Shown here: positions 1,943 through 59,782 of the stretch, one piece after another
How the letters are laid out: every line of letters begins with the position of its first letter
Position numbering within the stretch: the first letter of the stretch is position 1
Source: Lucinisca nassula
Lineage: Eukaryota > Mollusca > Bivalvia > Lucinida > Lucinidae
DNA length: 64,000 bases
Assembly (NCBI GenBank): GCA_963580285.1
Contig: OY757026.1
Coordinates: 81,137,817-81,201,816, forward strand
Direction of reading: 5' to 3'
The notes under the pieces: generated by a model
The model's database searches: none
Told to the model about the DNA's origin: nothing
What the model saw: the letters and a program-made list of their open reading frames with translations, nothing else
Program-made: the position numbers and the translations under genes

Positions 1943-2542
1943 TCTAAAGTAGAACAAAGATCAGGAATCGATACAATTAACTTACTCCACCCATCAAAGA
2001 CACCAAAGGGAAAGAAACACAAACATTAAGCGACCAGACCATAATGGAAACCTAAACAAAGGAAGGCCATAAGGACAGTTACTTTCCCACAAAATGGCCA
2101 TATGGCCATCCAAAATAAAAAGACACAAGTGATACACACAGTAAATAACAAACAACACCATAAATAAACCGCCACAGAAGAACCGCCTTGGAACGGTCAG
2201 TGGAATGATTTCCACGGGGGGGGGGGGGGGGGGGGGGGGGGCTTAAATCGATTTTACGTGGCCACAATCCTCGCCCTTACTTCCGTCGCGATTTAGACAA
2301 ATAGTTTGTTCAGTCCGCATGAAGGCCTCCTAACTCATCAGTGCAACAACATCTCCGTGAACACAAAAAATCATAGAACCACAGAGGTGCGACAACGGTG
2401 TGGACTCGACAGCAAGAAACCACTGAAATGCTGGAGCAAAAGAAAACCAACAGTTAGATTCCGATGGGCCCGACCAGAGACAGAGCATCAGGCACCAACC
2501 AACATTACCTTGAATTAGATCTCTCTAATTCTCAATAAGCCT
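1943..2542 (-). repeat. PLE-A 3' tail
   Basis: Non-coding tail following the reverse transcriptase of PLE-A. It carries the blocks shared by all copies: a tgatgagttaggaggcc block, a homopolymer G:C tract before aatcgattttacgtgg, tttgtgggaaagtaactgtcc, and a terminal tctctgatgggagctgtg / cgattcctgatcattgcc block. Solo copies of this tail are scattered through the window. Confidence 0.85.
2217..2241. repeat. Poly-G tract inside PLE tail
   Basis: An uninterrupted G run of over 20 bases at the fixed homopolymer position of the PLE tail. Other copies have shorter or mixed G/C runs at the same place. Confidence 0.9.
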
Positions 2543-4042
2543 TTACGTTGGAGCCGTCATAGAATCTGAGGCCTGACCCAACGGCATGCAATTAAAGAGG
2601 GAAGCAAAGTTGCCGACCGTGATTGGGTTAACTACCATGCATGCAGTATGTCGTATAACATCCATGTTGTACCCAATCTTTTTATAGCGAAGAATGATTT
2701 TACGAAATTGGGTGCTGAAGTCATTGCGGCAATATATTTTTCTGAATTTATATACTCAGTCACCATAAAATTCGGGTTCAGATAGACCTTGTTGCAGAAG
2801 AGATTTAAGTCCAATATTGAATTTTGAAATTAAATCAGAATGGCGTCTATAAAATTTTGAAAAGGCTTTGCGTAGTTTATGGTACCGATAACCCTGATTA
2901 AGGAGTTTAGCCGTTAATAATTTATTACGAGTGTTGAAGTCAGTTACATGACTACACACTCTAGCAAATCGAATTAATTGCGAAATATAAACGCCATAGG
3001 ATGGTGCACGAGGAACATCACCATCCAAAAAAGGAAACTTTACAATCTCAAAATCAAAGTCATCGCGTTTATCATAAATTTTGCAAGGAACAAATCCATC
3101 TACAATAGATAGATGTAAATCCAAAAACGGGGCCTCGGTATCAGAAGAATTTGCTTTATTTAACTGAAGTTCTGGGGGGTAAATCTGACTGATCAAACCA
3201 TCGAAATAGGTATTATCAATATTTAATAAATCATCTAAATATCTAGAAGTGGAGCTAAAAGCTTCAATAATTTCAGATTGGTTATCAATGGAAAGCGACA
3301 ACATGAAGTCTCTTTCATAACAATACAAGAACAGATCAGCCACAAGAGGTGCGCAATTCGTACCCATCGGAATACCCACAATTTGTCTAAATAACTTAGT
3401 ACCGAATCTAATATAAATATTGTCAAGTAGAAAGGTGAGGGCATCACACACTTTCTGACATGACCAAAGTGTATAATTCTTATGCTGTTTAGAAGTGAAA
3501 AATGCATTTCTGACATTACATGCAAGATAGAGAGAATCTTCTCTGTGAAAAGCCCATTCAATTAAATCATTAAGCTTTTCTTTTATAAGATTATGAGGAA
3601 GTGTAGTGTAAAGAGTGGAAAAATCGTAAGTAGACAGACTTGAAGCACGAAAATGTTTGGATTTCAATTTATTTGAAACCTCATTCGAATTTTTCATAGA
3701 CCAAAACAGATTTCTTCCTGATCTTTCAAAGACTTTATCACAATATTTAATCACATGAGTTTTAATAGCAGTACGACAGGAAGTTAATAATTTAGAAAGT
3801 TCAGTGGTAGTGCAAGAGCTAGAATTTGCAATAAACCGTGCTTTGTAAGGTCTTTTATGAAGTTTTGGTAACCAGTATAGCGTAGGAAGCTTGTCTTGGC
3901 CTTCGTTAACACACACAGCAAACTTGGTGGCTGAATGACAAACATGTTTATCTACTATAGCTCTCTCTTCAGCTAGAGGCTGAAGTTCATAGGCCTTAGT
4001 ACTACCAAGCTCCTGCTTAAGCGTGTTAACATAGTGGAGCCG
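2543..4042 (-). pseudogene. Penelope-like reverse transcriptase (PLE-A), one stop
   Basis: RNA-dependent DNA polymerase of a retroelement. Read from 4042 downward the frame is open to a TGA at 2756-2758, then continues in the same frame to TAA at 2543-2545, about 500 codons in all. Motifs in order: LYWLPKLHKRP near the N end, YDFSTLYTTLPH (first catalytic Asp), GIPMGTNCAPLVADLF, SRYLDDLLNI (catalytic YLDD), FLDLHL, then a basic region ending in a conserved NPITV block. The internal TGA replaces a Leu codon (GDLVYKF in other copies), a single nonsense change. No ATG is evident at the start; an in-frame TGA at 4043-4045 closes the frame, so the 5' end is probably truncated. The pattern fits Penelope-like RTs, but no GIY-YIG endonuclease domain is visible downstream. 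A related RT clade is possible. Confidence 0.8.
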
Positions 4043-4167
4043 TCACGCAACGACGAGTCGCCGTTCAGACTACATTCAAGCTACCCGCCAGTGCTGTCCG
4101 TGTTTTAATTTGGATTTCCTATTGGATTGTTTCGGGTCGGGAAAAAGTATGTAAAGGTCACTGGTAT

Positions 4168-7470: not shown

Positions 7471-7502
7471 AAAGCTACACAATCAGAATAGAAATTAAAA
7501 CA

Positions 7503-8025
7503 ATGATCAGGAATCGATGCGATTAACCCAAAGCTCCCATCAGAGACACCAAAGGGAAAGAAACACAAACATGAAATAACTAGACCCTTATGGAAACATT
7601 AATAGCTGAAAGCCAAAAGGACAGTTACTTTCCCACAAAATGGCCTATTGGCTATCCGAAAACAAAAATATAAGTGATACACACACTCAAAGACAAACAA
7701 GAACAAAACTACACCGCGACAGAAGAACCGCCTTGAAACGGTCACTGAAACGAATCCCACTGTTGGGGAGAGGGGGGGGGGCGTTTAAATCGATTTTTCG
7801 CGCCCACAATCCTCGCCCTTACTTCCGTCGCGATATAGACAAATAATTTGTTCAGTCCACATGAAGGCTCTCTACCTCATCAGTGCAATATCTCCTAGAA
7901 CACAAAAAACAAACAACCACAGAGATAAAACAACGGTGAGGACTTGACAGCTAGAAACCAGTGAAATACTGAAGCAAAAGAAAACCAACAGTTATACTCC
8001 AATGGGCCCGACCATCAAAGCACTG
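7503..8025 (-). repeat. Solo PLE 3' tail
   Basis: Complete tail blocks in minus orientation without an adjoining RT; the right edge stops at the gggcccgacca block. The homopolymer site reads mostly G. Confidence 0.85.
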
Positions 8026-12048: not shown

Positions 12049-13885
12049 TGTACATACATAAATATATGCATGCATACATCGCTACCCTACCCTACCCCAC
12101 GCTTCCCCACTCAAACTCACCCACCCCACCCCACCACACTACACCCCACCCTAACCAACCCCACCATGCCCCACCCTACAACACCCCACCACACCCTGCC
12201 CCACCCCACACACACATGCATGCAGTCATGCACAAATCCTTTGTTGACTAGGAATATTTTTTTTGTCTTTTTCTTCATAAACACATAACACAGAAATTAA
12301 ACCCCTACACAAAAGTTGATAGTGGGTGGTGATATGCCATTTGTCCTGTACATACATAAATACATGCATGCATATATTCCTACCCTACCCTACTCCACAC
12401 CACCCCACCCCACCCAGCCCATCACATGACACCCTACCCCACAACACCCCACCCCTAGACAACACACCTCAACTCGGCCCACTCCAATTACACATGCATG
12501 CATGCACACACACATGCATTTACACTCAAACATGCATGCTCATACACAATCACTCATTTATGCTTGCACACCCGCATACAAACACACATGCATGCATGCA
12601 CACACACACTGATGCTTGCATGCATACATGCAGGTACTCACAAATGCATGTATGCATGTACACAAATATGCATGCATGCACACTTATGGACCCACACAAT
12701 GTCATGCACACACATGCATGCACATGCAGGCATGCACACTTATGCACTCACACATGCACACAAACACACACACACACAAACAAACACACACACACACACA
12801 CAAACATGCATAAATACATGCATGCATATATTCCTACCCTACCCCACCCCACCCCACCGACCCTACCACATGACATCCTACCCCACAACACCCCACCCCA
12901 CGACAACCCACCTCAACCCGGCCCACAACACTTACACATGCATGCATGCACACACACATGCACTTACACTCAAGCATGTATGCTCATACACAATCACTCA
13001 TTTATGCGTGCACATCCACATACAAACGCACATGCATGCATGCACACACTGATGCTTGCATGCATACATGCAGGTACTTACACATGCATGCACACTTATG
13101 GATCACACAGGCCCACACACACATGCATGCACATGCAGGCATGCACACTTATGCACTTACACATGCACACACACAAACATGCATGCACATGAAGGCATGC
13201 ACTCACGCATTAATGCATGCCATAAGAAAACATGCATCCACACATGCACTCAGGCATGCACCCATGAAATGCACTCACAATCACACATGCATGCGCTCAT
13301 GCATGTACACATGCATACACTCACAAACACGCACATACACATGTATGCTTTCATGCATGCATGTACGCCCACATACAAACATGCATGCACTCACGCATGC
13401 ATGCACTCACACATGCATGTATGTGTACCCACATGCAAACATACATGCACACATGTATGCGCTCACAGATGCATACATGCACCCATAAATGCTTACACAC
13501 ATGCATGCACTCATGCATGAAGACACACATGCATGCATGCATGCATACACACATGCATGGTTTTATGTATGCATGCAAACATGCAAGCACACATGCACTT
13601 ATACATGCATACACAAATTCATGTATTCACAGTTGCATGCATGTACATACATGCATGCATGCTCTCATGCATGAACACTCACATGCATCCATCCATCCAT
13701 GCACACACATGCATGCATCCATGCACACACATGCATGCATGCACATGCATGCCTGCATCCATGCATACATGCACTCCCACATGCAAACATGCATGTACTC
13801 ATGCATGCATATACACATGCATGCATATATATACACACAAACATGCAATCCCAACACAAACACACACACACACATGTATATTTTC
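12049..13885. repeat. TGCA-rich minisatellite with CCACC blocks
   Basis: Dominated by alternating purine-pyrimidine octamers (tgcatgca, acacacac, catgcatg), favourable for Z-DNA and cruciforms. Larger blocks repeat: a tacataaatacatgcatgc / ctaccctaccc / caccccacc segment occurs near 12050, 12355 and 12810. Long ORFs here encode only His/Cys/Thr/Ala repeats and are not genes. Confidence 0.9.
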
Positions 13886-14527: not shown

Positions 14528-16112
14528 GCCAGACCATACAAAGCACGGTTTATTGCAAACCGTCACTGAACTACCAAATTATTAACTTCATGGTTTACTG
14601 CCGTAAAAAAAACATGTGATTAAATATTGAATTATCAGGGATAAATATGTTTTAGCCTATAAAAATCTATTGAAGTTTTAAATTAATTGAAATCCAGACG
14701 TTTTCATGCTTCAATTATGCCTACTTATGGTTTTTCCACTCTCTACACTACACTTCATCGTCATACTATAAAACAAAAATTTAAATATTTAATTAAATGG
14801 GCATTTCATAGAGAAGATTCCCTCTATCTTGCATGTCATGTAAGGAATGTTTTTGTTGTTTTTTTTTTACTTCTGCAGAGCATACAAAATATACTTTATG
14901 GTCATATCAGAAAGTGTGTGAAGCTCTCACCTTTCTACTTGACAATATAAACATAAATTTTGGTACTAAGTTATTTAGACAAATTGTGGGTTTTCCAATG
15001 GGTACGAACTGTGCATCTCTTGTGGCTGATTTGTTGTTTTGTTTTTGTTTTTTGTTTCTATGAAAGAGGCCCGCCTCGGAAGCTCAGTCGGATGCGCGTC
15101 TGACTGGTGACCAGGAGAACGCGGGTTCGATACCTGCCGGGGTCGGCAACATTCTTTCGTGGAGATTAATCATGAAATCTTTTCTCTACGGTCATTCTCC
15201 CCCTTCAACTGATTTAAGAAGGGCAGTTGCCAGTTTCTGGCGAAAAAATGTGCACTGTACTGGTTAACCGCTTACGTATAAGCTTGCCCAGGAAAAGTGT
15301 AGATAGGTAAACTGACCGGCTCAAAACTGACCTAAAATAGTGTTGACTGGGCCGTTAAACTCCAAAACAAAACAAACAAATCAATGGAATAGACTTCATG
15401 GTGCGTCTTTCAGTTGAAAACCAATCTGAGGCCTATATCTCGACTTCTAGATATCTGGATGATTGATTAAATATTGACAATACCTGTTTCGATGGTTTGA
15501 TCAATCAAATTTAGCATCCCCGCCCCCGAGAACTTCAGTTAAACAAAGCAACTTCTTCTGATACCGCGGCCACGTATTTGAATTTACATCTGTCGTCTAT
15601 TGTAGATGTTTTTGTTTCCCGCAAAATGTATGATACGCATGATGGGTTTGATTTTGTGATTGTAAATTTTCTTTTTTAGGGGGTGGTGATGTTCCTCGCG
15701 CGGCATCCTATGGTGATTATGTTTCGCATTTAATTCGATTTCCCAGAGTGTCTAGTCATGTAACTGACTTTAACTTCGTAATAAATTGTTAACTGCTAAA
15801 CTTCTTAATCATGGTCATGGGTATCATGAACTACGCAAAGCCTTTTCTAAATTTTATAGACATCATTCCGATTTAATATCGAAATTCAATGATAGACATA
15901 AATCTCTTCTGCAACCAAGGTCTATCGGAGCCCGAATTTTATGGTGACTAAGTATATAAATTCAGAAAAATACATACATGCAAACTTGCAATGATTTCAG
16001 TACCCAATTTCGTAAAACCATTATTCGATTTAAAAAATCGGATACAACCTAAATGTTATACAACAGACTGCATGTATGGTAGCTAACCCAGTCACGGTTG
16101 ATAATAGTTTAT
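14528..16112 (+). pseudogene. PLE-B reverse transcriptase remnant
   Basis: Decayed plus-strand copy of the same RT as PLE-A. Recognisable pieces are a fingers-region fragment near 14528-14680, STLYTTLH near 14740, the VGFPMGTNCASLVADL block near 14985-15035, a decayed YLDD region near 15450, and the closing KFYRHHSD / NPVTV region. A full-length SINE (15068-15384) splits it between the PMGTNC motif and the YLDD region. Several frameshifts and a T-rich expansion are present. A second SINE lies in its tail. Confidence 0.8.
15068..15384 (+). repeat. tRNA-derived SINE S1, full length
   Basis: Head cggaagctcagtcggatgcg (A-box) and gcgggttcgatacctgcc (B-box), a body with catgaaatcttttctc, and a tail of gttaaactccaaaacaaaac. 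It interrupts PLE-B. The flanks atgaaagag / atggaatag could be a decayed target duplication (7 of 9). Confidence 0.85.
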
Positions 16113-19250: not shown

Positions 19251-19553
19251 TTTGTTTGTATTGGAGTTTTACGGCCCAGTCAACACTATTTAGGTCATTT
19301 TTGAGCCTGTCAGTTTACCTATCAACACTTTCCTGGGCAGGCTTATACGTAAGCGGTTAACCAGTTCAGTGCACATTCTTTCGCCAGAAACTGACAACTG
19401 CCCTTCTTGAATCAGCGGAAGGGAGAGAATGACAGTAGAAAAGATTTCAGGATCAATCTCCACGAAAGAATGTTGCCGACCCCGGCGGGAGTCGAACCCG
19501 CGACCTCCTGATCACTAGTCAGACGCGCATCCGACTGAGCCACTGAGGCCGGC
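19251..19553 (-). repeat. tRNA-derived SINE S1, copy 2
   Basis: Near full length, minus orientation: B-box complement gggagtcgaacccgcgac, head at the right end, T-rich complement of the tail at the left. Confidence 0.85.
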
Positions 19554-29406: not shown

Positions 29407-29572
29407 GGCTGAACTCTCCAAATTATTAACTTCATGTTTTACTGCCATCAAAAAACATGTGATAAAATATTGCGACAAAGTCTTCAAAAGATCAAGTAGA
29501 AATCTGTTTTGGTCTATAAAATATTATAATGAAGTTTTAAATAAATTGAAATCCAGGCGTTTTCGTGCTTCA
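29407..29572 (+). pseudogene. PLE-D reverse transcriptase, left part
   Basis: Plus-strand RT fragment, from the KLLTSC region to the KLKSRRFRAS region. Its last bases (cgtgcttca) are exactly what precedes the first bases of the right part at about 31616 (tctgtctacttatg) in intact copies. This half and the 31616-32693 half are therefore one element split by PLE-C. Confidence 0.75.
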
Positions 29573-30313
29573 AAATAGAAGTGGGCCAATGATCAGGAAT
29601 CGAAAAAAATAACCCACAGCTCCCATCAGAGACACCAAAGGGAAAGAAACACAAACATGAAGCAACAGACCACAACGGAAACACCAACAGCGGAAAGGCA
29701 AAAGGACAGTTACTTTCCCACAAAATGGCCAATAGGCTATCCAAAATAAAATAATATAAGCAACACAAACACCCAAAGACAAACAATTACAAAAATAAAC
29801 CGCGACAGAAGAACCGCCTCGGAACTGTCAGTGGAAACGAATTCAACTGGGGGGGGGGGGGCTTAAATCGATTTTACGTGGCCACAATCTTTGCCCTTAC
29901 TTCCGTCGCGATTAAGACAAATAATTTGTTAAGTCCGCATGGAGGCCTCCTAACTCATCAGCGCATTATCTGCGTGAACACAAAAATCAAACAACCACAG
30001 AGATGAAACAAGGACTCGACAGCAAGAAACCACTGAAATGCTGCAGCACAAGAAACCAACAGTTAGACTCCGATTGGCCCGACCAGAGACAGAGCATCAG
30101 GTACAAACCAACATAAGCCTTTACGTTGGAACCGTCATAGAATCTGAGGCCTGACCCACCGGCGTGCAATTAGAGAGTTAAGCAAAGTTGTCAACCGTGA
30201 TGGGGTTACCTACCATGCATTTAGTCTGTCGTATAACATTTATGTTGTACCCAATCTTTTTATATCGAAGAATGATTTTACGAAATTGGGTGCCGAAGTC
30301 ATTGCGGTTGTAA
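29573..30313 (-). repeat. PLE-C 3' tail, unedited
   Basis: Complete tail in minus orientation, from the 3' tip (aatagaagtgggccaatgat) through the G tract near 29848-29860 to the end of the RT. It matches other tails normally, without the A-to-G excess seen upstream. Confidence 0.85.
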
Positions 30314-31612
30314 ATTTTCCCCGAACACACACACCAAGCCACCACAAAAACCCGGGCTCCGACAGACCCCGCCGCAGAAGAGACCCAAGCCCAACACCGA
30401 ACCCTGAAACCAAACCAGAATGACGTCTATAAAATTTTGAAAAGGCCCTGCGCAGCCCACTGCACCGATAACCCTGATTAAGAAGTTCAGCCGTTAACAA
30501 TCGACTACGAGTGTCGAAGTCAGCTACATGACTACACACTCTGGCAAATCGAATATATCGCGAAACACAAACGCCACAGGACGGCGCACGAGGAACACCA
30601 CCGCCCAAAAAAGGAAAGTTTACATCCCCAAAACCAAAACCACCGCGTCCACCACAAACCCCGCAAAAAACAAACCCATCCACAACAGACAGATGCAAAC
30701 CCAAAAAACGGGGCCTCGGCCCCAGAAGAACCCGCCCTACTCAAACGAAGTCCTGGGGGCAAATTTGACTGATCAACCCATCGAAATAGGTATTATCAAC
30801 ACCCAACAAACCATCCAAACATCCAGAAGTGGAGCTAAAAGCCCCAACGACCACAGACCGGCCATCAGCAGAAAGGGACATCATGAAGTTTCTCTCTCAA
30901 CAAAACAAAAACAGACCAACCACAAGCGGCGCGCAACCAGCACCCACCGGAACACCCACAACCCGCCCAAACAACCCAGTACCAAATCGTATGTAAATAT
31001 TGTCGAGAGCCTCACACACTCTCTGACGTGACCACAAAGTACAGCTTTTATGCTCTTCAGAAGTGAAAAATGCACCCCACACACTACATGCAAGACAGAG
31101 GGAGCCCTCCCCACGAAACGCCTACCCAACCAAACCATCAAGCCTCTCCCCCACAAGACCACGAGGAAGTGTAGTGTAACGGTTGGAAAAATCAGAAGCA
31201 GAAAGACTTGAAGCACGAAAACGCCCGAATCCCAACCCATCCAAAACCCCATTAGAATTTTCTAAAGACCAAAAACGACCTCCACCCGATCTTTCGAAAA
31301 CTTTGTCTCATCACCCTACCACACTTCCTTTGATGGCAGTAAAACATGAAGTCAACAACTCGGAGAGCCCAGAGGCGACACAAGAGCCCGAACCTGCAAC
31401 AAACCGCGCTCCGCATGGTCCCTCACGAAGCTTAGGTAACCAACACAACGCAGAAAGCCTGTCCTGGCCCTCTGCAACACAGACAGCAAACCCGGTGGCC
31501 GAACGACAAACGCTGTCAGAAACCAAAGCCGTCTCCGCAGCCAAAGGCTGAAGTTCATAGGTCCCAGCACCACCAAGTTCCCGCCGAAGAGCGCCAACAC
31601 AGCGAAGCCGCC
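30314..31612 (-). pseudogene. PLE-C reverse transcriptase, A-to-G hypermutated
   Basis: Same RT as PLE-A, read on the minus strand from about 31612 to 30314, covering the N-terminal region to the end of the RT. Its sense strand carries dense A-to-G changes (T-to-C on the plus strand). These give Asp/Glu to Gly, Lys to Arg/Gly, Asn to Ser/Asp, Tyr to Cys, Ile to Val and Gln to Arg throughout. The region homologous to 2801-2838 is 30381-30418: 13 of 14 plus-strand T are C, with no other change. Over 30791-30830 against 3211-3250, 9 of 16 T are C and nothing else differs. Unedited patches (for example 30427-30446) alternate with saturated ones. The protein cannot be functional. The element lies inside PLE-D, whose flanks are normal. 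Confidence 0.85.
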
Positions 31613-31615
31613 AAA

Positions 31616-32693
31616 TAAGTCCAGTCTGTCTACTTATGATTTTTCCACCCTTTACACTACACTTCATCATAATCTTATAAAAGAAAAACTTAATGATTTA
31701 TTTGAATGGACATTCCATAAGGAAGACGCCCTCTATCTTGCATGTAATGTAATAAATGCTTTTTTCACTTCTGAAGAGAATAAAAAGAATACATTATGGT
31801 CATGTCAGAAAGTGTGTGAAGCTCTCACTTTTTTTCTTGACAATATTTACATAAGATTTGGTACTAAGTTATTTAGACAAGCTGTGGGTATTCCGATGGG
31901 TACTAATTGCGCATCACTTGTGGCTAATCTGTTTTTGTTTTGTTATGAGAGATACTTCATGATGTCCCTTTCTGCTGAAAACCAGTCTGAAATCATTGAA
32001 GCTTTTAGCTCAACTTCTAGATATTTGGATGATTTATTAAATATTGATAATACCTATTTGATGGTTTGATCAGTCAAATTTACCCCCCAGAACTTCAGTT
32101 AAATAAAGAAAATTCTTCTGATACCGAGGCCCCGTTCTTGGATTTACATCTATCTATTGTAGATGGGTTTATTTCTTGCAAAATTTATGATGAACACGAT
32201 GATTTTGATTTTGAGTTTGTAAATTTTCCTTTTTTGGATGATAATGTTCCTCGTGCGCCATCCTATGGCGTTTATATTTCGCAATTAATTCGATTTGCCA
32301 GAGTGTGTCGTTATGTCACTGACTTCAACACTCGTAATAAATTGTTTACAGCTAAACTTATAAATTAGGGTAACCAAAGGATAACCCTTTCCAGAACATA
32401 TTATCGGTACCATAAACTAGGCAGGGCCTTTTCAAAATTTTATAGACGTCATTCTTATTTAATTTCAAAATTCAATATTGGACTTAAATCTCTTCTGCAA
32501 CAAGGTCTTTCGGAACCCGAATTTTATGGTGACTTAATATATAAAATCAGAAAAATATATAACCGCAATGACTTCAGCACCCAATTTCGTAAAGTCATTC
32601 TTCGATATAAAAAGATTGGATATAACATAAATGTTATACGACAGACTGCATGCATGGTAGTTAACCCAATCACGGTTGACAACTTTGCTTAAC
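31616..32693 (+). pseudogene. PLE-D reverse transcriptase, right part
   Basis: Continues from TYDFSTLYTTL through AVGIPMGTNCASLVANLF and SRYLDDLLNIDN. A one-base deletion near 32056 shifts the frame; the next frame carries FLDLHLSIVDGF to RNKLFTAKL. A 31-nt foreign patch near 32372-32402 then interrupts it before the KFYRRHS region. The end matches NPITV near 32670. Confidence 0.85.
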
Positions 32694-33285
32694 TCTTTAA
32701 TTGCATGCCGGTGGGTCAGGCCTCAGCTTCTTTGACGGTTACAGCGTAAAGGCTTATGTTGGTTGGTACCTGATGCTCTATCTCTGGTCGGGCCCATCGG
32801 AGTCTAACTGTTTGTTTTCTTTTGCTCGAGCATTTCAGTGGCTTCTTGCTGTCGAGTCCTCTCCGTTGTCTCACCTCTGTGGTTGTTTGATTTTTTGTGT
32901 TCAGGAAGATGTTGCACTGATGAGTTAGGAGGCCTTCATGCGGACTGAACAAATTATTTGTCTTAATCGCGATGGAAGTAAGGGCGAGGATTGTGGCCAC
33001 GAAAAATCGATTTAAGCCCCACAGTGGAATTCGTTTCCGCTGACAGTTCCATCGCGGTTTATTTTGTTATTGTTTGTCTTTAGGTGTTTGTGTCGCTTAC
33101 ATTATTTTATTTTGGATAGCCTATTGGCCATTTTGTGGGAAAGTAACTGTCCTTTTGGCTTTCCGCTATTGATGTTTCCATTAGGGTCTGTTGTTTCATG
33201 TTTGTGTTTCTTTCCCTTTGGTGTCTCTGATGGGAGCTGTGGGTTAATTGTATCTATTCCTGATCATTGCCTCCACTTCTATTAT
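32694..33285 (+). repeat. PLE-D 3' tail
   Basis: Complete plus-strand tail ending cattgcctccacttctatt, followed immediately by a SINE S1 fragment. Confidence 0.85.
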
Positions 33286-33488
33286 ACGTAGGCGGTTAAC
33301 CAGTACAGTGCACATCTTTTCGCCAGAAACAACTGCCCTTCTTGAATCAGCGGAAGGGAGAGAATGGCGCTAGAAAAATATTCATGATTAATCTCCACGA
33401 AAGAATGCTGCCGACCCCCGCAGGTATCGAACCCGCGTCCTCCTGATCACCAGTCAGACGCGTATCCGACTGAGCTACCGAGGCCGGC
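33286..33488 (-). repeat. SINE S1, 3'-truncated copy
   Basis: Minus orientation, head at 33488 (gaggccggc complement) and B-box complement gtatcgaacccgcg. The 3' half is missing at the junction with the PLE-D tail. Confidence 0.8.
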
Positions 33489-34299: not shown

Positions 34300-34680
34300 G
34301 GCTTCATTCGGGCTTCGGACTGAAAAAATTATTTGTCTAAATCGCGACGGAAGTAAGGGCGAGGATTGTGGCAACGTAAATTCGATGTAAGCCCCCCCCC
34401 CCCCCACCCCCCAGTGTAATTCGTTTCCATTGACCATTCCAAAGCGGTTCTTCTGTCGCGGTTTATTTTTGTTATGGTTTGTCTTTGGGTGTTTGTGTCG
34501 CTGATGTTATTTTATTTTGGATAGCCTTTTGACCATTTTGTGGGAAAGAAACTGTCCTTTTGGCTTTCCGCTATTGATGTTTCCATTAGGGTCTGTTGTT
34601 TCCTGTTTGTGGTTCTTTCCCTTTGGTGTCTCTGATGGGAGCTGTGGGTTAATATTATCGATTCCTGATCATTGCCCCCC
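34300..34680 (+). repeat. Solo PLE 3' tail
   Basis: Runs from the actgaaaaaattatttgtcta block to cgattcctgatcattgcc. C-runs occur at the homopolymer site (34393-34412) and again just beyond its end (34675-34715). Confidence 0.85.
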
Positions 34681-57224: not shown

Positions 57225-57969
57225 AGAAAGATCAGGAATCGATACAATTAACTTACTCCACCCATCAAAGACACCAAAGGGAAAGAAACACCGACATGAA
57301 GCGACCAGACCAAAATGGAAACCTAAACAAAGGAAGGCCATAAGGACAGTTACTTTCCCACAAAATGGCCATCCAAAATAAAAAGACACAAGTGAAACTC
57401 ACTGTAAGTAACAAACAGCAACACAAATAAACCGCCACAGAAGAACCGCCTTGGAACGGTCAGTGGAAAGAATTCCACTGGTGGGCTTAAATCGATTTTA
57501 CATGGCCATAATCCTCGCCCTTACCTCTTTCGCGGTATACACTAACTTTGTTTAGTCCGCATGAAGGTTTCCTAACTCATCAGTGTAACATACAAATCAA
57601 AAAACTACAGAGATGAAACAAGGTTGAGGACTCGACAGCATACAACAACATAATTGCTGGAGCAAAAGAAAACAAACAGTTAAACTCCGAGGGGCCCGAC
57701 CAAAGACGGAGCATCAGGCGCCAACCAACATAAAGAATACTGAAATAAAAAAATTCCATTTATGCTTTTACGCTGGAACCGTCATATAATCTTACGCCCG
57801 ACCCACCGGTGTGCAATAAAAGAGGGAAGCAAAGTTGCCAACCGTGACTTGGTTAACCACCATGCATGCAGTCTGTTTTATAACACTTATGTTGTACCCA
57901 ATCTTTATATATCGACGAACGATTTTACGAAATTGGGTACTAAAGTCATTACAGGCATGTATTTTTCTA
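57225..57969 (-). repeat. PLE-F 3' tail
   Basis: Complete tail in minus orientation. Its homopolymer G tract is almost absent (ccactggtgggcttaaatc). It continues to the KIILRYKK-equivalent end of the RT before the MITE. Confidence 0.85.
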
Positions 57970-58908
57970 AAGGACTTCGGAAACTATGGGGGGTTTTATG
58001 CCTCAATTTTGAAAGCTTCTGCAAGCGTCTGTAGTGTGTATATATGGAATTGACCTAATGTATACTAAAAACTGACGTATGTCGAACATCATGGCATTTA
58101 CCAAATGTAGAAGGATGGCACACTAGTAGAAAAATTCCACATTGAAGTGGGCGGGGTTGATAATTTTTGAAAAAAATATAAGGTAAAAAAATGACAATTC
58201 CATGTTTCATTTTCAAGTTGATATCAAGTTAGGGCTATTACAACTCAAAATTTTAACATATAGTGCTATGCACACATAAAACGCAGATGCACTACTTCAA
58301 TGCATTTTACACCAGGAGGTACAGTGCTCATCACAATTGGACACACCTGTACATAAATAATAATATTAGATATACACCTGTTATTTATAGAAGACAGGTA
58401 GCCTGCTCATTCAGGTATAACATACCTGTATTCTGTATGTACACTATATATGTTCAGCCAGGCATAAATATGTCCTTAGTTTAAAAATAAACCCTACTGT
58501 ATAATGATACAGTATAGTTCCAAACCCTGTGAAGTTTTTCAATGATAGCGCTAAGCATGCATGTTGGTTTTTAGGATTTTTCACAGCCTCCCCCCCCCTT
58601 GCCCAAACACGACAGTTGGTCAGAGGATGTATAAGTTAAAAATACAAATGTATGCCAAATTGTTTTATTGGGCAAGGGGGGGAACATATACTTATTTAAA
58701 AGTTTCTGTTTCCTATGCAACTTTATAGAAACTTGACTCAATTAAGCCAAAAATCAACAAAATTAATATTTGAGCTGTAGACCAAAATGCATATCATAAT
58801 AGAACAAAGTGTTACCTTTAAGTTGCCTCTGTGATGAGTTCGTTTGGTTAAATTTGAGAATTTTATAATTTCCGGGGCAAATGTCTTAACAAAGTTTCCG
58901 AAGTCCTT
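57970..58908. mobile_element. 939-bp non-autonomous element, TA duplication
   Basis: Perfect 16-bp termini aaggacttcggaaact / agtttccgaagtcctt, flanked by TA (57968-57969 and 58909-58910). It splits PLE-F. The interior holds an inverted pair cccccccttgcccaa / ttgggcaaggggggg (about 58590 and 58668). A 73-codon ORF at 58263 has no recognisable domain. No transposase motif seen. Confidence 0.8.
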
Positions 58909-58910
58909 TA

Positions 58911-59664
58911 TATACTAAGTCACCATAGAATTCGGGTTCCGATAGGGCATGCTGCAGAAGTGTTTTAAGTCCAACATTGAATTTTGAAACCAAATCAGAA
59001 TGACGTCTATAAAACTTAGAAAATGCTTTACGTAGCTTATGATACCGATACCCCTGATTAAGAAGTTTAGCGGTTAATAATTTATTACGGGTGTTGAAGT
59101 CGGATACATGACTAGACACTCTAGCGAATCGAATTAACTGCGAAATATAAACCCCGTACGATGTCGCACGAGGAACATCACCGTCCAAAAAAGGAAAATT
59201 TACAATCTCGAAATCAAAATCATCACGTTCATCATAAATTTTGCAAGAAACAAATCCATCTACAATAGATAAATGTAAATCCAAAAAGGGGGCCTCGGTA
59301 TCAGAGGATATTGCCTTGTTTAACTGAAGTTCTAGGGGTTAAACCTGACTGATCAAACCATCAATATTTAATAAATCATCTAAATATCTAGAAGTAGAAC
59401 TAAAAACTTCAATAATTTCAGATTGGTTATCAATGGAAACATGAAGTCTCTTTCATAACAATACAAGAACAGATCAGCCACAAGAGGTACGCAATTTGTA
59501 CCCATCGGAATACCCACAATTTGTCTAAATAACTTAGTACCGAATCTAATATAAATATTGTCAAGTAGAAAGGTGAGAGCATCACACACTTTCTGACATG
59601 ATCAAAGTGTATAATTCTTATGCTCTTTAGAAGTGAAAAATGCATTTCTGACATTACATGCAAA
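58911..59664 (-). pseudogene. PLE-F reverse transcriptase, 5'-truncated
   Basis: From 59664 down: NVRNAFFTS, then QIVGIPMGTNCVPLVADLFL, a small deletion in the FMLSLS region that shifts the frame, SRYLDDLLNID, another deletion after it, and an intact stretch FLDLHLSIVDGF to LSEPEFYGDLVYK. The 3' end continues past the MITE at 57969. The 5' half is missing. Confidence 0.85.
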
Positions 59665-59782
59665 ACCTACAATTTACATGTGTACCCAGCGAAGTATAAG
59701 ATCAGCCTGCGCATCCATATAGTCTAACCACAGACTTCTCATGCTGCATGAAGGAGTAATGGGTCTTTAGCTATCCTTAGAG

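What the first reader, a model, noticed from the sequence alone, without database searches (positions are those of the whole stretch)
30314..31612. A Penelope-like copy that looks ADAR-hyperedited before insertion
Seen: in two stretches compared base by base with PLE-A (30381-30418 against 2801-2838; 30791-30830 against 3211-3250), 22 of 30 plus-strand T are C and no other base differs in 78 nt. Four other copies (A, D, E, F) agree on the unedited state where they overlap. On the sense strand this is A-to-G only, clustered, with untouched patches between. Known: ADAR deaminates A to I in double-stranded RNA, and reverse transcription reads I as G. Inference: the PLE RNA was hyperedited, then copied into the genome. 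The 3' tail of the same copy and the flanking PLE-D are normal, which excludes a regional DNA mutation process and dates the change to before insertion. This would be a genomic fossil of RNA editing acting on a retroelement.
Basis: partly seen in the sequence, partly recalled or inferred. Interest (0 to 1): 0.92.

Follow-up and report, generated by a model that had tools for sequence, protein, structure and literature searches.

The report
Retroelement copies carrying fossil RNA editing
One copy of a mobile element in this genome (likely an animal's) carries about 220 one-way A-to-G changes on its coding strand, most likely because the RNA-editing enzyme ADAR rewrote its RNA before that RNA was copied back into DNA, and two dozen other copies in the same genome show the same mark at largely different sites.

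Summary
In 30314-31613, 219 of 390 coding-strand A are G (T to C 18/456, G to A 6/221), stopping abruptly at 30314 (9/143 beyond). The copy is inserted antisense inside an unedited copy, PLE-D. It is not alone: in the window's own 2.9-Gb genome, 25 of 36 fetched relatives are A-to-G dominated, a share enriched by the edited query. The cleanest have 178 A-to-G against 4 changes at 1517 non-A sites, or 217 against 6. Patterns differ between copies (median correlation 0.13), so this is not one G-rich subfamily. Neighbour preference over 23 pieces is ADAR's: 5' T .42 > A .38 > C .31 > G .24. None of 100 pieces is T-to-C or G-to-A dominated. Of 163 public proteins, apparently from other assemblies, 29 show the signature; a mirrored T-to-C query found none. 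The genome encodes ADAR-type deaminase domains. Best reading: recurrent ADAR hyperediting of retroelement RNA, then reverse transcription into the genome. Among copies chosen by an unedited 3' tail, 1 of 27 pieces is edited.

The parts
29574..31613 (-). the whole inserted retroelement copy (ED), coding strand minus, 5' end at 31613, 3' end at about 29574
   Evidence: aligned to copy A 1947-4045 over 2103 columns; shares the 3' end ...ACTTCTATT with D, E, I
30314..31613 (-). hyperedited part: coding-strand A-to-G at 219 of 390 A, in clusters with untouched patches
29574..30313 (-). unedited 3' part of the same copy (end of ORF and 3' tail), A-to-G 9/143
29409..29573 (+). host copy PLE-D, piece upstream of the insertion, unedited (A 3804-3640 equivalent)
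   Evidence: 84.8% to A 3804-3640; 31 of 41 mismatches to ED are A-to-G
31614..33286 (+). host copy PLE-D, piece downstream of the insertion (continues from about A 3643), unedited; apparent inexact short target duplication TCAA / TCCA at the two edges
1947..4045 (-). copy PLE-A, unedited reference, ORF open but for one stop; about 3% at non-A sites from the young edited copies elsewhere in the genome
39838..41338 (+). copy PLE-E, unedited reference
57227..59666 (-). copy PLE-F, unedited reference, with an insert at 57972-58906 bounded by inverted repeats
14531..16110 (+). copy G (two pieces), unedited; the second piece used as reference
34316..34679 (+). copy H, 3' fragment, unedited reference
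7487..8014 (-). copy I, 3' fragment, unedited reference

Best explanation
This is a retroelement copy whose coding-strand RNA was most likely hyperedited from A to inosine by a host ADAR while paired in double-stranded RNA, then likely reverse transcribed (inosine read as G) and inserted into the genome. Shown: the change is A-to-G on the coding strand only, clustered, confined to the inserted copy, recurrent at other sites in other copies, and has ADAR's neighbour preference. Inferred: the enzyme, the duplex (probably with antisense or inverted-repeat transcripts of the same family), and that damaged RNAs were mobilised in trans by reverse transcriptase from another copy, since 13 of 26 readable edited pieces have lost an aspartate codon of the YLDD motif (catalytic role recalled).
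For: Strand-specific spectrum in the window. Same genome: 36 of the 40 main hits were fetched (the four left out lie in a tandem array with L010); 25 of the 36 loci hold A-to-G-dominated copies. Pooled over the 23 pieces that pass a strict rule, against copy A: A-to-G 3649/10647, T-to-C 152/14557, G-to-A 167/7809, C-to-T 252/7644, A-to-C 26, A-to-T 152. For 23 young pieces against their own per-column majority (A preferred where copies are mixed A/G), A-to-G is 3613 of 4101 substitutions; L010 has 178 A-to-G and 4 of 1517 non-A sites changed, L002 217 and 6 of 1517, L033 101 and 4 of 1192. Context: 5' T .419 A .380 C .308 G .244 (p 9e-43); inside edited stretches 3' G .755 C .674 A .662 T .630 (p 3e-6); best triplet TAG .49, worst GAA .19. 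Positions -2 and +2 also give p 5e-9 and 1e-6, so clustering inflates these p values; the -1 effect is by far the largest. It is the preference reported for metazoan editing: 5' U and A favoured, G disfavoured; 3' G favoured, U disfavoured in most species (PMC9989829, passages). Edited copies nested in unedited copies: L001, L016, L021, L026, probably L017. Codon positions equally hit (.381.379.400). ADAR-type deaminase domains in the genome (PF02137, 20 matches over the cut-off, best E 1.5e-62; one exon with HAE, PCG and ESGEGTIP). Hyperedited Penelope RNA has been seen in lizard, over 40 thousand sites (PMC5625713, section 7). Control: 29 of 163 proteins A-to-G type, 0 T-to-C type, also with a mirrored T-to-C query.
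Against: No RNA was examined; no editing of present-day transcripts is shown. The second strand of the duplex was not found: the unedited patches correlate with mismatches to copies A, E and F (-0.13 to -0.29; 0.3 to 7% of shifted tracks as low) but not with D or G, which names no partner. For the single window copy the 3' neighbour shows no preference (p 0.71) and the 5' effect is modest (p 0.011); with the young-copy majority the 3' effect is weak too (p 0.04). The DNA version of the T-to-C control in this genome was asked four times and never answered.
Confidence: 0.93

Rival explanations
1. The G-rich sequence is an inherited subfamily: one edited (or GC-rich) master copy spread, and all such copies descend from it.
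For: Two tandem units in L006 share 34 edited sites (phi 0.82), and five hits on C2 are spaced 4.21 kb (only one of them, L010, was read), so edited DNA seems to be duplicated now and then. Some positions are hot or cold in many copies (p 0.0003 over 14 copies), and pairwise correlations are positive on average.
Against: All other pairs are at most 0.43 (median 0.126 of 351 pairs); edited segments start and stop at different places; non-A sites place the edited copies in at least two groups, 23 pieces at about 3-4% and 4 pieces at 10-13% from A.
Confidence: 0.03
2. DNA-level hypermutation after insertion (error-prone polymerase at WA sites, a DNA adenine deaminase, or biased gene conversion).
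For: Polymerase-eta-type mutation also prefers A after A or T (recalled).
Against: The change stops at the edges of the insert while the host copy on both sides is unedited; only the coding strand is affected whatever the orientation on the chromosome; gene conversion would raise T-to-C as well, which is 152/14557.
Confidence: 0.02
3. Mutagenic reverse transcription: the element's own enzyme misreads template A, as in diversity-generating retroelements.
For: It would also be limited to the insert and to template A.
Against: A-to-C and A-to-T are not raised in edited pieces (0.0024 and 0.0143 per A against 0.0116 and 0.0335 in the remaining, older pieces; 0.0021 and 0.0061 against the young majority); patches, ADAR-type neighbours, and unedited sibling copies of the same age group.
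Confidence: 0.02
4. Sequencing or assembly artefact, for instance poor base calls in one arm of an inverted repeat.
For: In the window the edited copy and its host form a long inverted repeat.
Against: Edited copies also lie in direct orientation inside a host (L026) and without another copy in the fetched flanks (L002, L003, L008); non-A sites are nearly unchanged; proteins apparently of other assemblies carry the same signature.
Confidence: 0.01

Closest known systems
ADAR hyperediting of repeat transcripts (Porath 2017, PMC5625713; passages and section 7 seen)
   Same: clustered A-to-G, G disfavoured 5' of the site, repeats that form duplexes; Penelope RNA is a massively edited element in lizard
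   Different: there the change is in RNA over an unchanged genome; here it is fixed in the genome of a new insertion
APOBEC footprints in genomic retroelements (Zaranek 2010, PMC2873906; passages seen)
   Same: strand-specific clusters of one mismatch type fixed by retrotransposition
   Different: that is C deamination of cDNA giving G-to-A; here A-to-G on the sense strand; in the passages seen, retroelement clusters were more often G-to-A/C-to-T than A-to-G/T-to-C (114 against 49 and 247 against 129)
ADAR hypermutation of viral RNA (Drosophila sigma virus, PMC2790459, listing and start of abstract; avian retrovirus cases recalled)
   Same: A-to-G hypermutated genomes after editing of duplex RNA
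   Different: viral replication intermediates, not germline insertions of a cellular retroelement
Penelope-like retroelements (Frangieh 2024, PMC11167929, abstract seen; tandem partial copies recalled)
   Same: a retroelement family with long 3' tails and, by recall, tandem partial copies
   Different: the abstract reports start of reverse transcription at two adjacent internal sites and says nothing of editing; assignment of this family to PLEs rests on recall

Membership tests
ADAR hyperediting | A-to-G only, on one RNA sense | tested here: met
   27 of 100 pieces A-to-G dominated, 0 T-to-C, 0 G-to-A, 1 marginal C-to-T (20 changes)
ADAR hyperediting | clusters of edited A with untouched patches | tested here: met
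   runs test for the window copy, segmentation of 27 pieces
ADAR hyperediting | 5' neighbour U, A favoured and G disfavoured; weaker 3' G preference | tested here: met
   for the window copy alone the 5' order is met and the 3' preference is not seen
ADAR hyperediting | host encodes a catalytically complete ADAR | tested here: met
   PF02137 matches over the cut-off on C12 (two places), C15, C16, C130, C9; one exon with HAE and PCG motifs (motifs recalled); whole genes were not assembled
ADAR hyperediting | substrate was double-stranded RNA | tested here: inconclusive
   partner not identified; mismatch test weak; recurrent hot and cold patches
ADAR hyperediting | editing visible in RNA | not testable with these tools
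   no RNA reads
retrotransposed copy | common 3' end, variable 5' truncation, short target duplications | tested here: met
   many copies reach A 2099 and begin at different 5' points; junction overlaps of about 2-4 bp read by eye, inexact in the window copy
Penelope-like element | PLE reverse transcriptase | tested here: inconclusive
   no Pfam family for copy A; RVT_1 weakly in 6 of 30 homologues, best E 0.0042; no solved relative; YLDD motif by eye
Penelope-like element | GIY-YIG endonuclease domain | not tested
   copies are 5' truncated; no GIY-YIG family was listed, which were not aimed at it

The most novel reading that the evidence does not exclude
Host ADAR acts as a standing restriction factor on germline retroelement RNA in many animals, and its failures are archived: hundreds of edited, catalytically dead RNAs per genome have been rescued in trans and returned to DNA, each with its own editing barcode that can track a single RNA molecule through reverse transcription.
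Probability: 0.6. Interest if true: 0.92.

Novelty: new variant of a known kind. Interest (0 to 1): 0.88.

Why it matters
Genomic footprints of cytidine deaminases on retroelements are known; an archive of adenosine deaminase action on retroelement insertions was not found in nine searches of the held library. Such copies make three questions testable from genome sequence: whether ADARs met retroelement RNA in the germline, what duplexes were formed, and whether retroelement enzymes copy RNAs in trans. Because copies largely differ in pattern, edits can mark single RNA molecules: the two tandem units of L006 share 34 edits, which suggests one template copied twice. Repeat libraries and gene predictions are also affected, since editing removes stop codons and gives long false ORFs: 29 of 163 listed proteins are of this kind.

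Tried and rejected
Foldback or inverted-repeat sequencing artefact: considered because ED and D form an inverted repeat; rejected (see rivals). PLE-F as the antisense partner: its two small deletions fall in unedited patches and its insert sits where editing stops in ED; the formal test was no better for F than for A or E, editing extends beyond F's 5' end, and other copies stop elsewhere, so this was dropped. Intramolecular folding as the cause of the pattern: correlation of pairing probability with edited fraction is weak (0.08, p 0.11; local mean 0.16, p 0.001). The microsatellite at 12.9-13.8 kb, next in the scan for one-way transitions, is a TGCA/CA repeat. Rfam at gathering thresholds: one tRNA and nothing else in the window. 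Prokaryote and viral contig scans with the protein gave no relative. A search meant to tell whether the host is a mollusc (PF14830) did not complete.

Full report
What was checked. On the coding strand (minus), 30314-31613 has 219 of 390 A changed to G, against T-to-C 18 of 456, G-to-A 6 of 221 and C-to-T 19 of 230; the rest of the same copy, 29574-30313, has 9 of 143. Edited sites are clustered (112 runs, 179 expected). In the window 1 of 11 pieces of this family of 250 bp or more is affected, the reference copy A not counted.

Anatomy. The edited copy spans 29574-31613, coding strand minus. To its left, 29409-29573 is a coding-strand piece of another copy (PLE-D) that corresponds to A 3804-3640, and to its right PLE-D goes on from about A 3643. 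The edited copy is therefore inserted, antisense, inside PLE-D. The two edges carry what looks like an inexact short duplication, TCAA and TCCA. PLE-D is unedited up to both edges: its left piece differs from the edited copy at 41 of 165 bases, of which 31 are A-to-G, 2 C-to-T, none T-to-C or G-to-A. So the change came with the insert.

The same genome holds many more. The window lies on C20 of a genome of 2.93 Gb in 696 contigs. The edited stretch was used as query; 36 of the 40 main hits were fetched (the four left out lie in a 4.21-kb tandem array with L010). Of the 36 loci, 25 hold A-to-G-dominated copies, in 27 pieces, and 11 do not. The query is itself edited, so this share is enriched and is not a frequency. 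Under a strict rule 23 pieces pass; pooled against copy A they show A-to-G 3649/10647, T-to-C 152/14557, G-to-A 167/7809, C-to-T 252/7644. The other 32 pieces of that call include four edited ones that missed the strict rule, which is part of why their pooled A-to-G is 842/9752. Among 100 pieces of 250 bp or more from the fetched loci and the window, 27 are A-to-G dominated (at least 20 changes and 2.5 times any other transition rate), none T-to-C, none G-to-A, and one marginally C-to-T with 20 changes (L001 and L037 were left out as duplicates of the window, and L061, described below, falls just short of the rule).

The cleanest cases are striking. Against the per-column majority of the 23 young pieces (with A preferred where copies are mixed A/G), L010 has 178 A-to-G and changes at 4 of 1517 non-A sites, L002 217 and 6 of 1517, L033 101 and 4 of 1192; A-to-G makes up 3613 of 4101 substitutions. 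The median divergence at non-A sites is about 1%, the highest 3.6%, so many of these insertions are recent. The window copy, L022, L004 and one piece of L009 are about 10-13% from A at non-A sites, so editing has hit more than one subfamily.

Enzyme signature. Pooled over 23 pieces, the edited fraction by 5' neighbour is T .419, A .380, C .308, G .244 (p 9e-43); inside edited stretches the 3' neighbour order is G .755, C .674, A .662, T .630 (p 3e-6); the best triplet is TAG and the worst GAA. Sites in one copy are not independent: positions -2 and +2 also give p values of 5e-9 and 1e-6 in the same call, so the p values are nominal; the -1 effect is much the largest. With the young-copy majority the 5' order is the same and the 3' effect is weak (p 0.04). 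A survey of 22 species reports 5' U and A favoured and G disfavoured across metazoans, and 3' G favoured and U disfavoured in most species (PMC9989829, passages). Another survey reports a downstream A preference for invertebrates and amphibians and a downstream G preference for mammals and reptiles (PMC5625713, passages); the 3' order here is of the latter kind, which I cannot interpret without knowing the species. For the window copy alone the 5' order is T .704, A .610, C .516, G .472 (p .011) and the 3' neighbour shows nothing (p .71). Codon positions are hit equally.

Independence. Over 351 pairs of edited pieces the median correlation of edited sites is 0.126; the highest after L006 is 0.43. 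Segment starts and ends differ. The exception is informative: the two tandem units of L006 share 34 edited sites, with 1 private to the first and 8 to the second, 6 of these 8 in one cluster at A 1290-1299. I read this as one edited RNA copied twice in one event; the private cluster is unexplained. Positions are hot or cold in many copies more than shifted tracks would give (14 copies, p 0.0003), as expected if the duplex geometry recurs.

The 3' end is spared. In 23 young pieces the edited share falls from 2876/7685 in A 1-1310 to 526/1879 in 1311-1700, 177/1049 in 1701-1950 and 34/499 in 1951-2099. Either the duplex rarely covers the 3' end, or RNAs edited there are less well accepted by the reverse transcriptase; [quoted passage not shown] The second idea is inference. 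At the YLDD motif 17 of 26 readable edited pieces are changed, 13 of them in an aspartate codon, and 9 are intact; the RNAs of the 13 could hardly have coded an active enzyme after editing, so mobilisation in trans is inferred.

Frequency. A second search used the unedited 3' tail of copy A, which says nothing about the coding part: 32 loci (12 returned, 20 fetched, of 40 scored hits; 8 not fetched) gave 27 pieces with at least 100 nt of coding sequence besides A itself, of which one, L061, has 20 or more A-to-G: 34, of which 28 lie in A 1222-1436. This sample is limited to copies with a tail close to A's.

Elsewhere. Searches of public proteins with copy A's translation and with the edited copy's listed 144 proteins; with the control search, 163; each search lists only its best 120. 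Of the 163, 29 have at least 20 A-to-G-only amino acid changes against the family majority and few of other single-transition kinds, up to 112 against 1, 1 and 1. Their patterns are mostly distinct. A control query with the mirrored T-to-C pattern returned no T-to-C-type protein (0 of 163, 0 of its 19 new ones), whereas 20 of the 24 new ones of the edited query are A-to-G type.

Host. PF02137 (adenosine deaminase domain) has 20 matches over its cut-off, on C12 (two places), C15, C16, C130 and C9, and none in the tool's 14 control genomes; one exon reads through HAE, PCG and ESGEGTIP (meaning of the motifs recalled). The genome thus encodes ADAR-type enzymes. I take it to be an animal, perhaps a mollusc because two homologous proteins come from MAGs of Candidatus Thiodiazotropha, which I recall as clam symbionts; this is inference.

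What is not settled. No RNA was seen. The duplex partner is unknown. The DNA form of the mirrored control did not complete. In nine literature searches on this question I found hyperedited repeat RNAs, including Penelope in lizard, and genomic APOBEC footprints, but in the listings no report of retroelement insertions fixed after ADAR editing; most subscription papers are not in that library.

Verdict.

Noticed in passing
G000:C2:159442190-159460323 (L010 is one unit): Five matches to the edited stretch spaced 4.21 kb in one orientation, three with identical scores, as in a tandem array; only L010 was read.
   Followed up: partly
L006:1500-3915: Two tandem partial units (A 1-1322 and A 991-2099) share 34 edited sites, but the second has an extra cluster of six at A 1290-1299 that the first lacks.
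   Followed up: partly
window 57972-58906: Insert of 935 bp in copy F with terminal inverted repeats GGACTTCGGAAACT, at the same place in the element where editing stops in the window copy.
   Followed up: partly
L001, L016, L021, L026: Edited copies inserted inside other copies of the same family, at sites that look like CTT.
   Followed up: no
window 12500-13850: Long TGCA/CA-rich microsatellite region.
   Followed up: no
window 19477-19549: tRNA gene or pseudogene on the minus strand (Rfam RF00005, 39.8 bits).
   Followed up: no
L047:2940-3505: A neighbouring copy has 28 of 101 A-to-G in its 3' part (G-to-A 9/141, T-to-C 8/212, C-to-T 13/102), possibly another edited copy.
   Followed up: no
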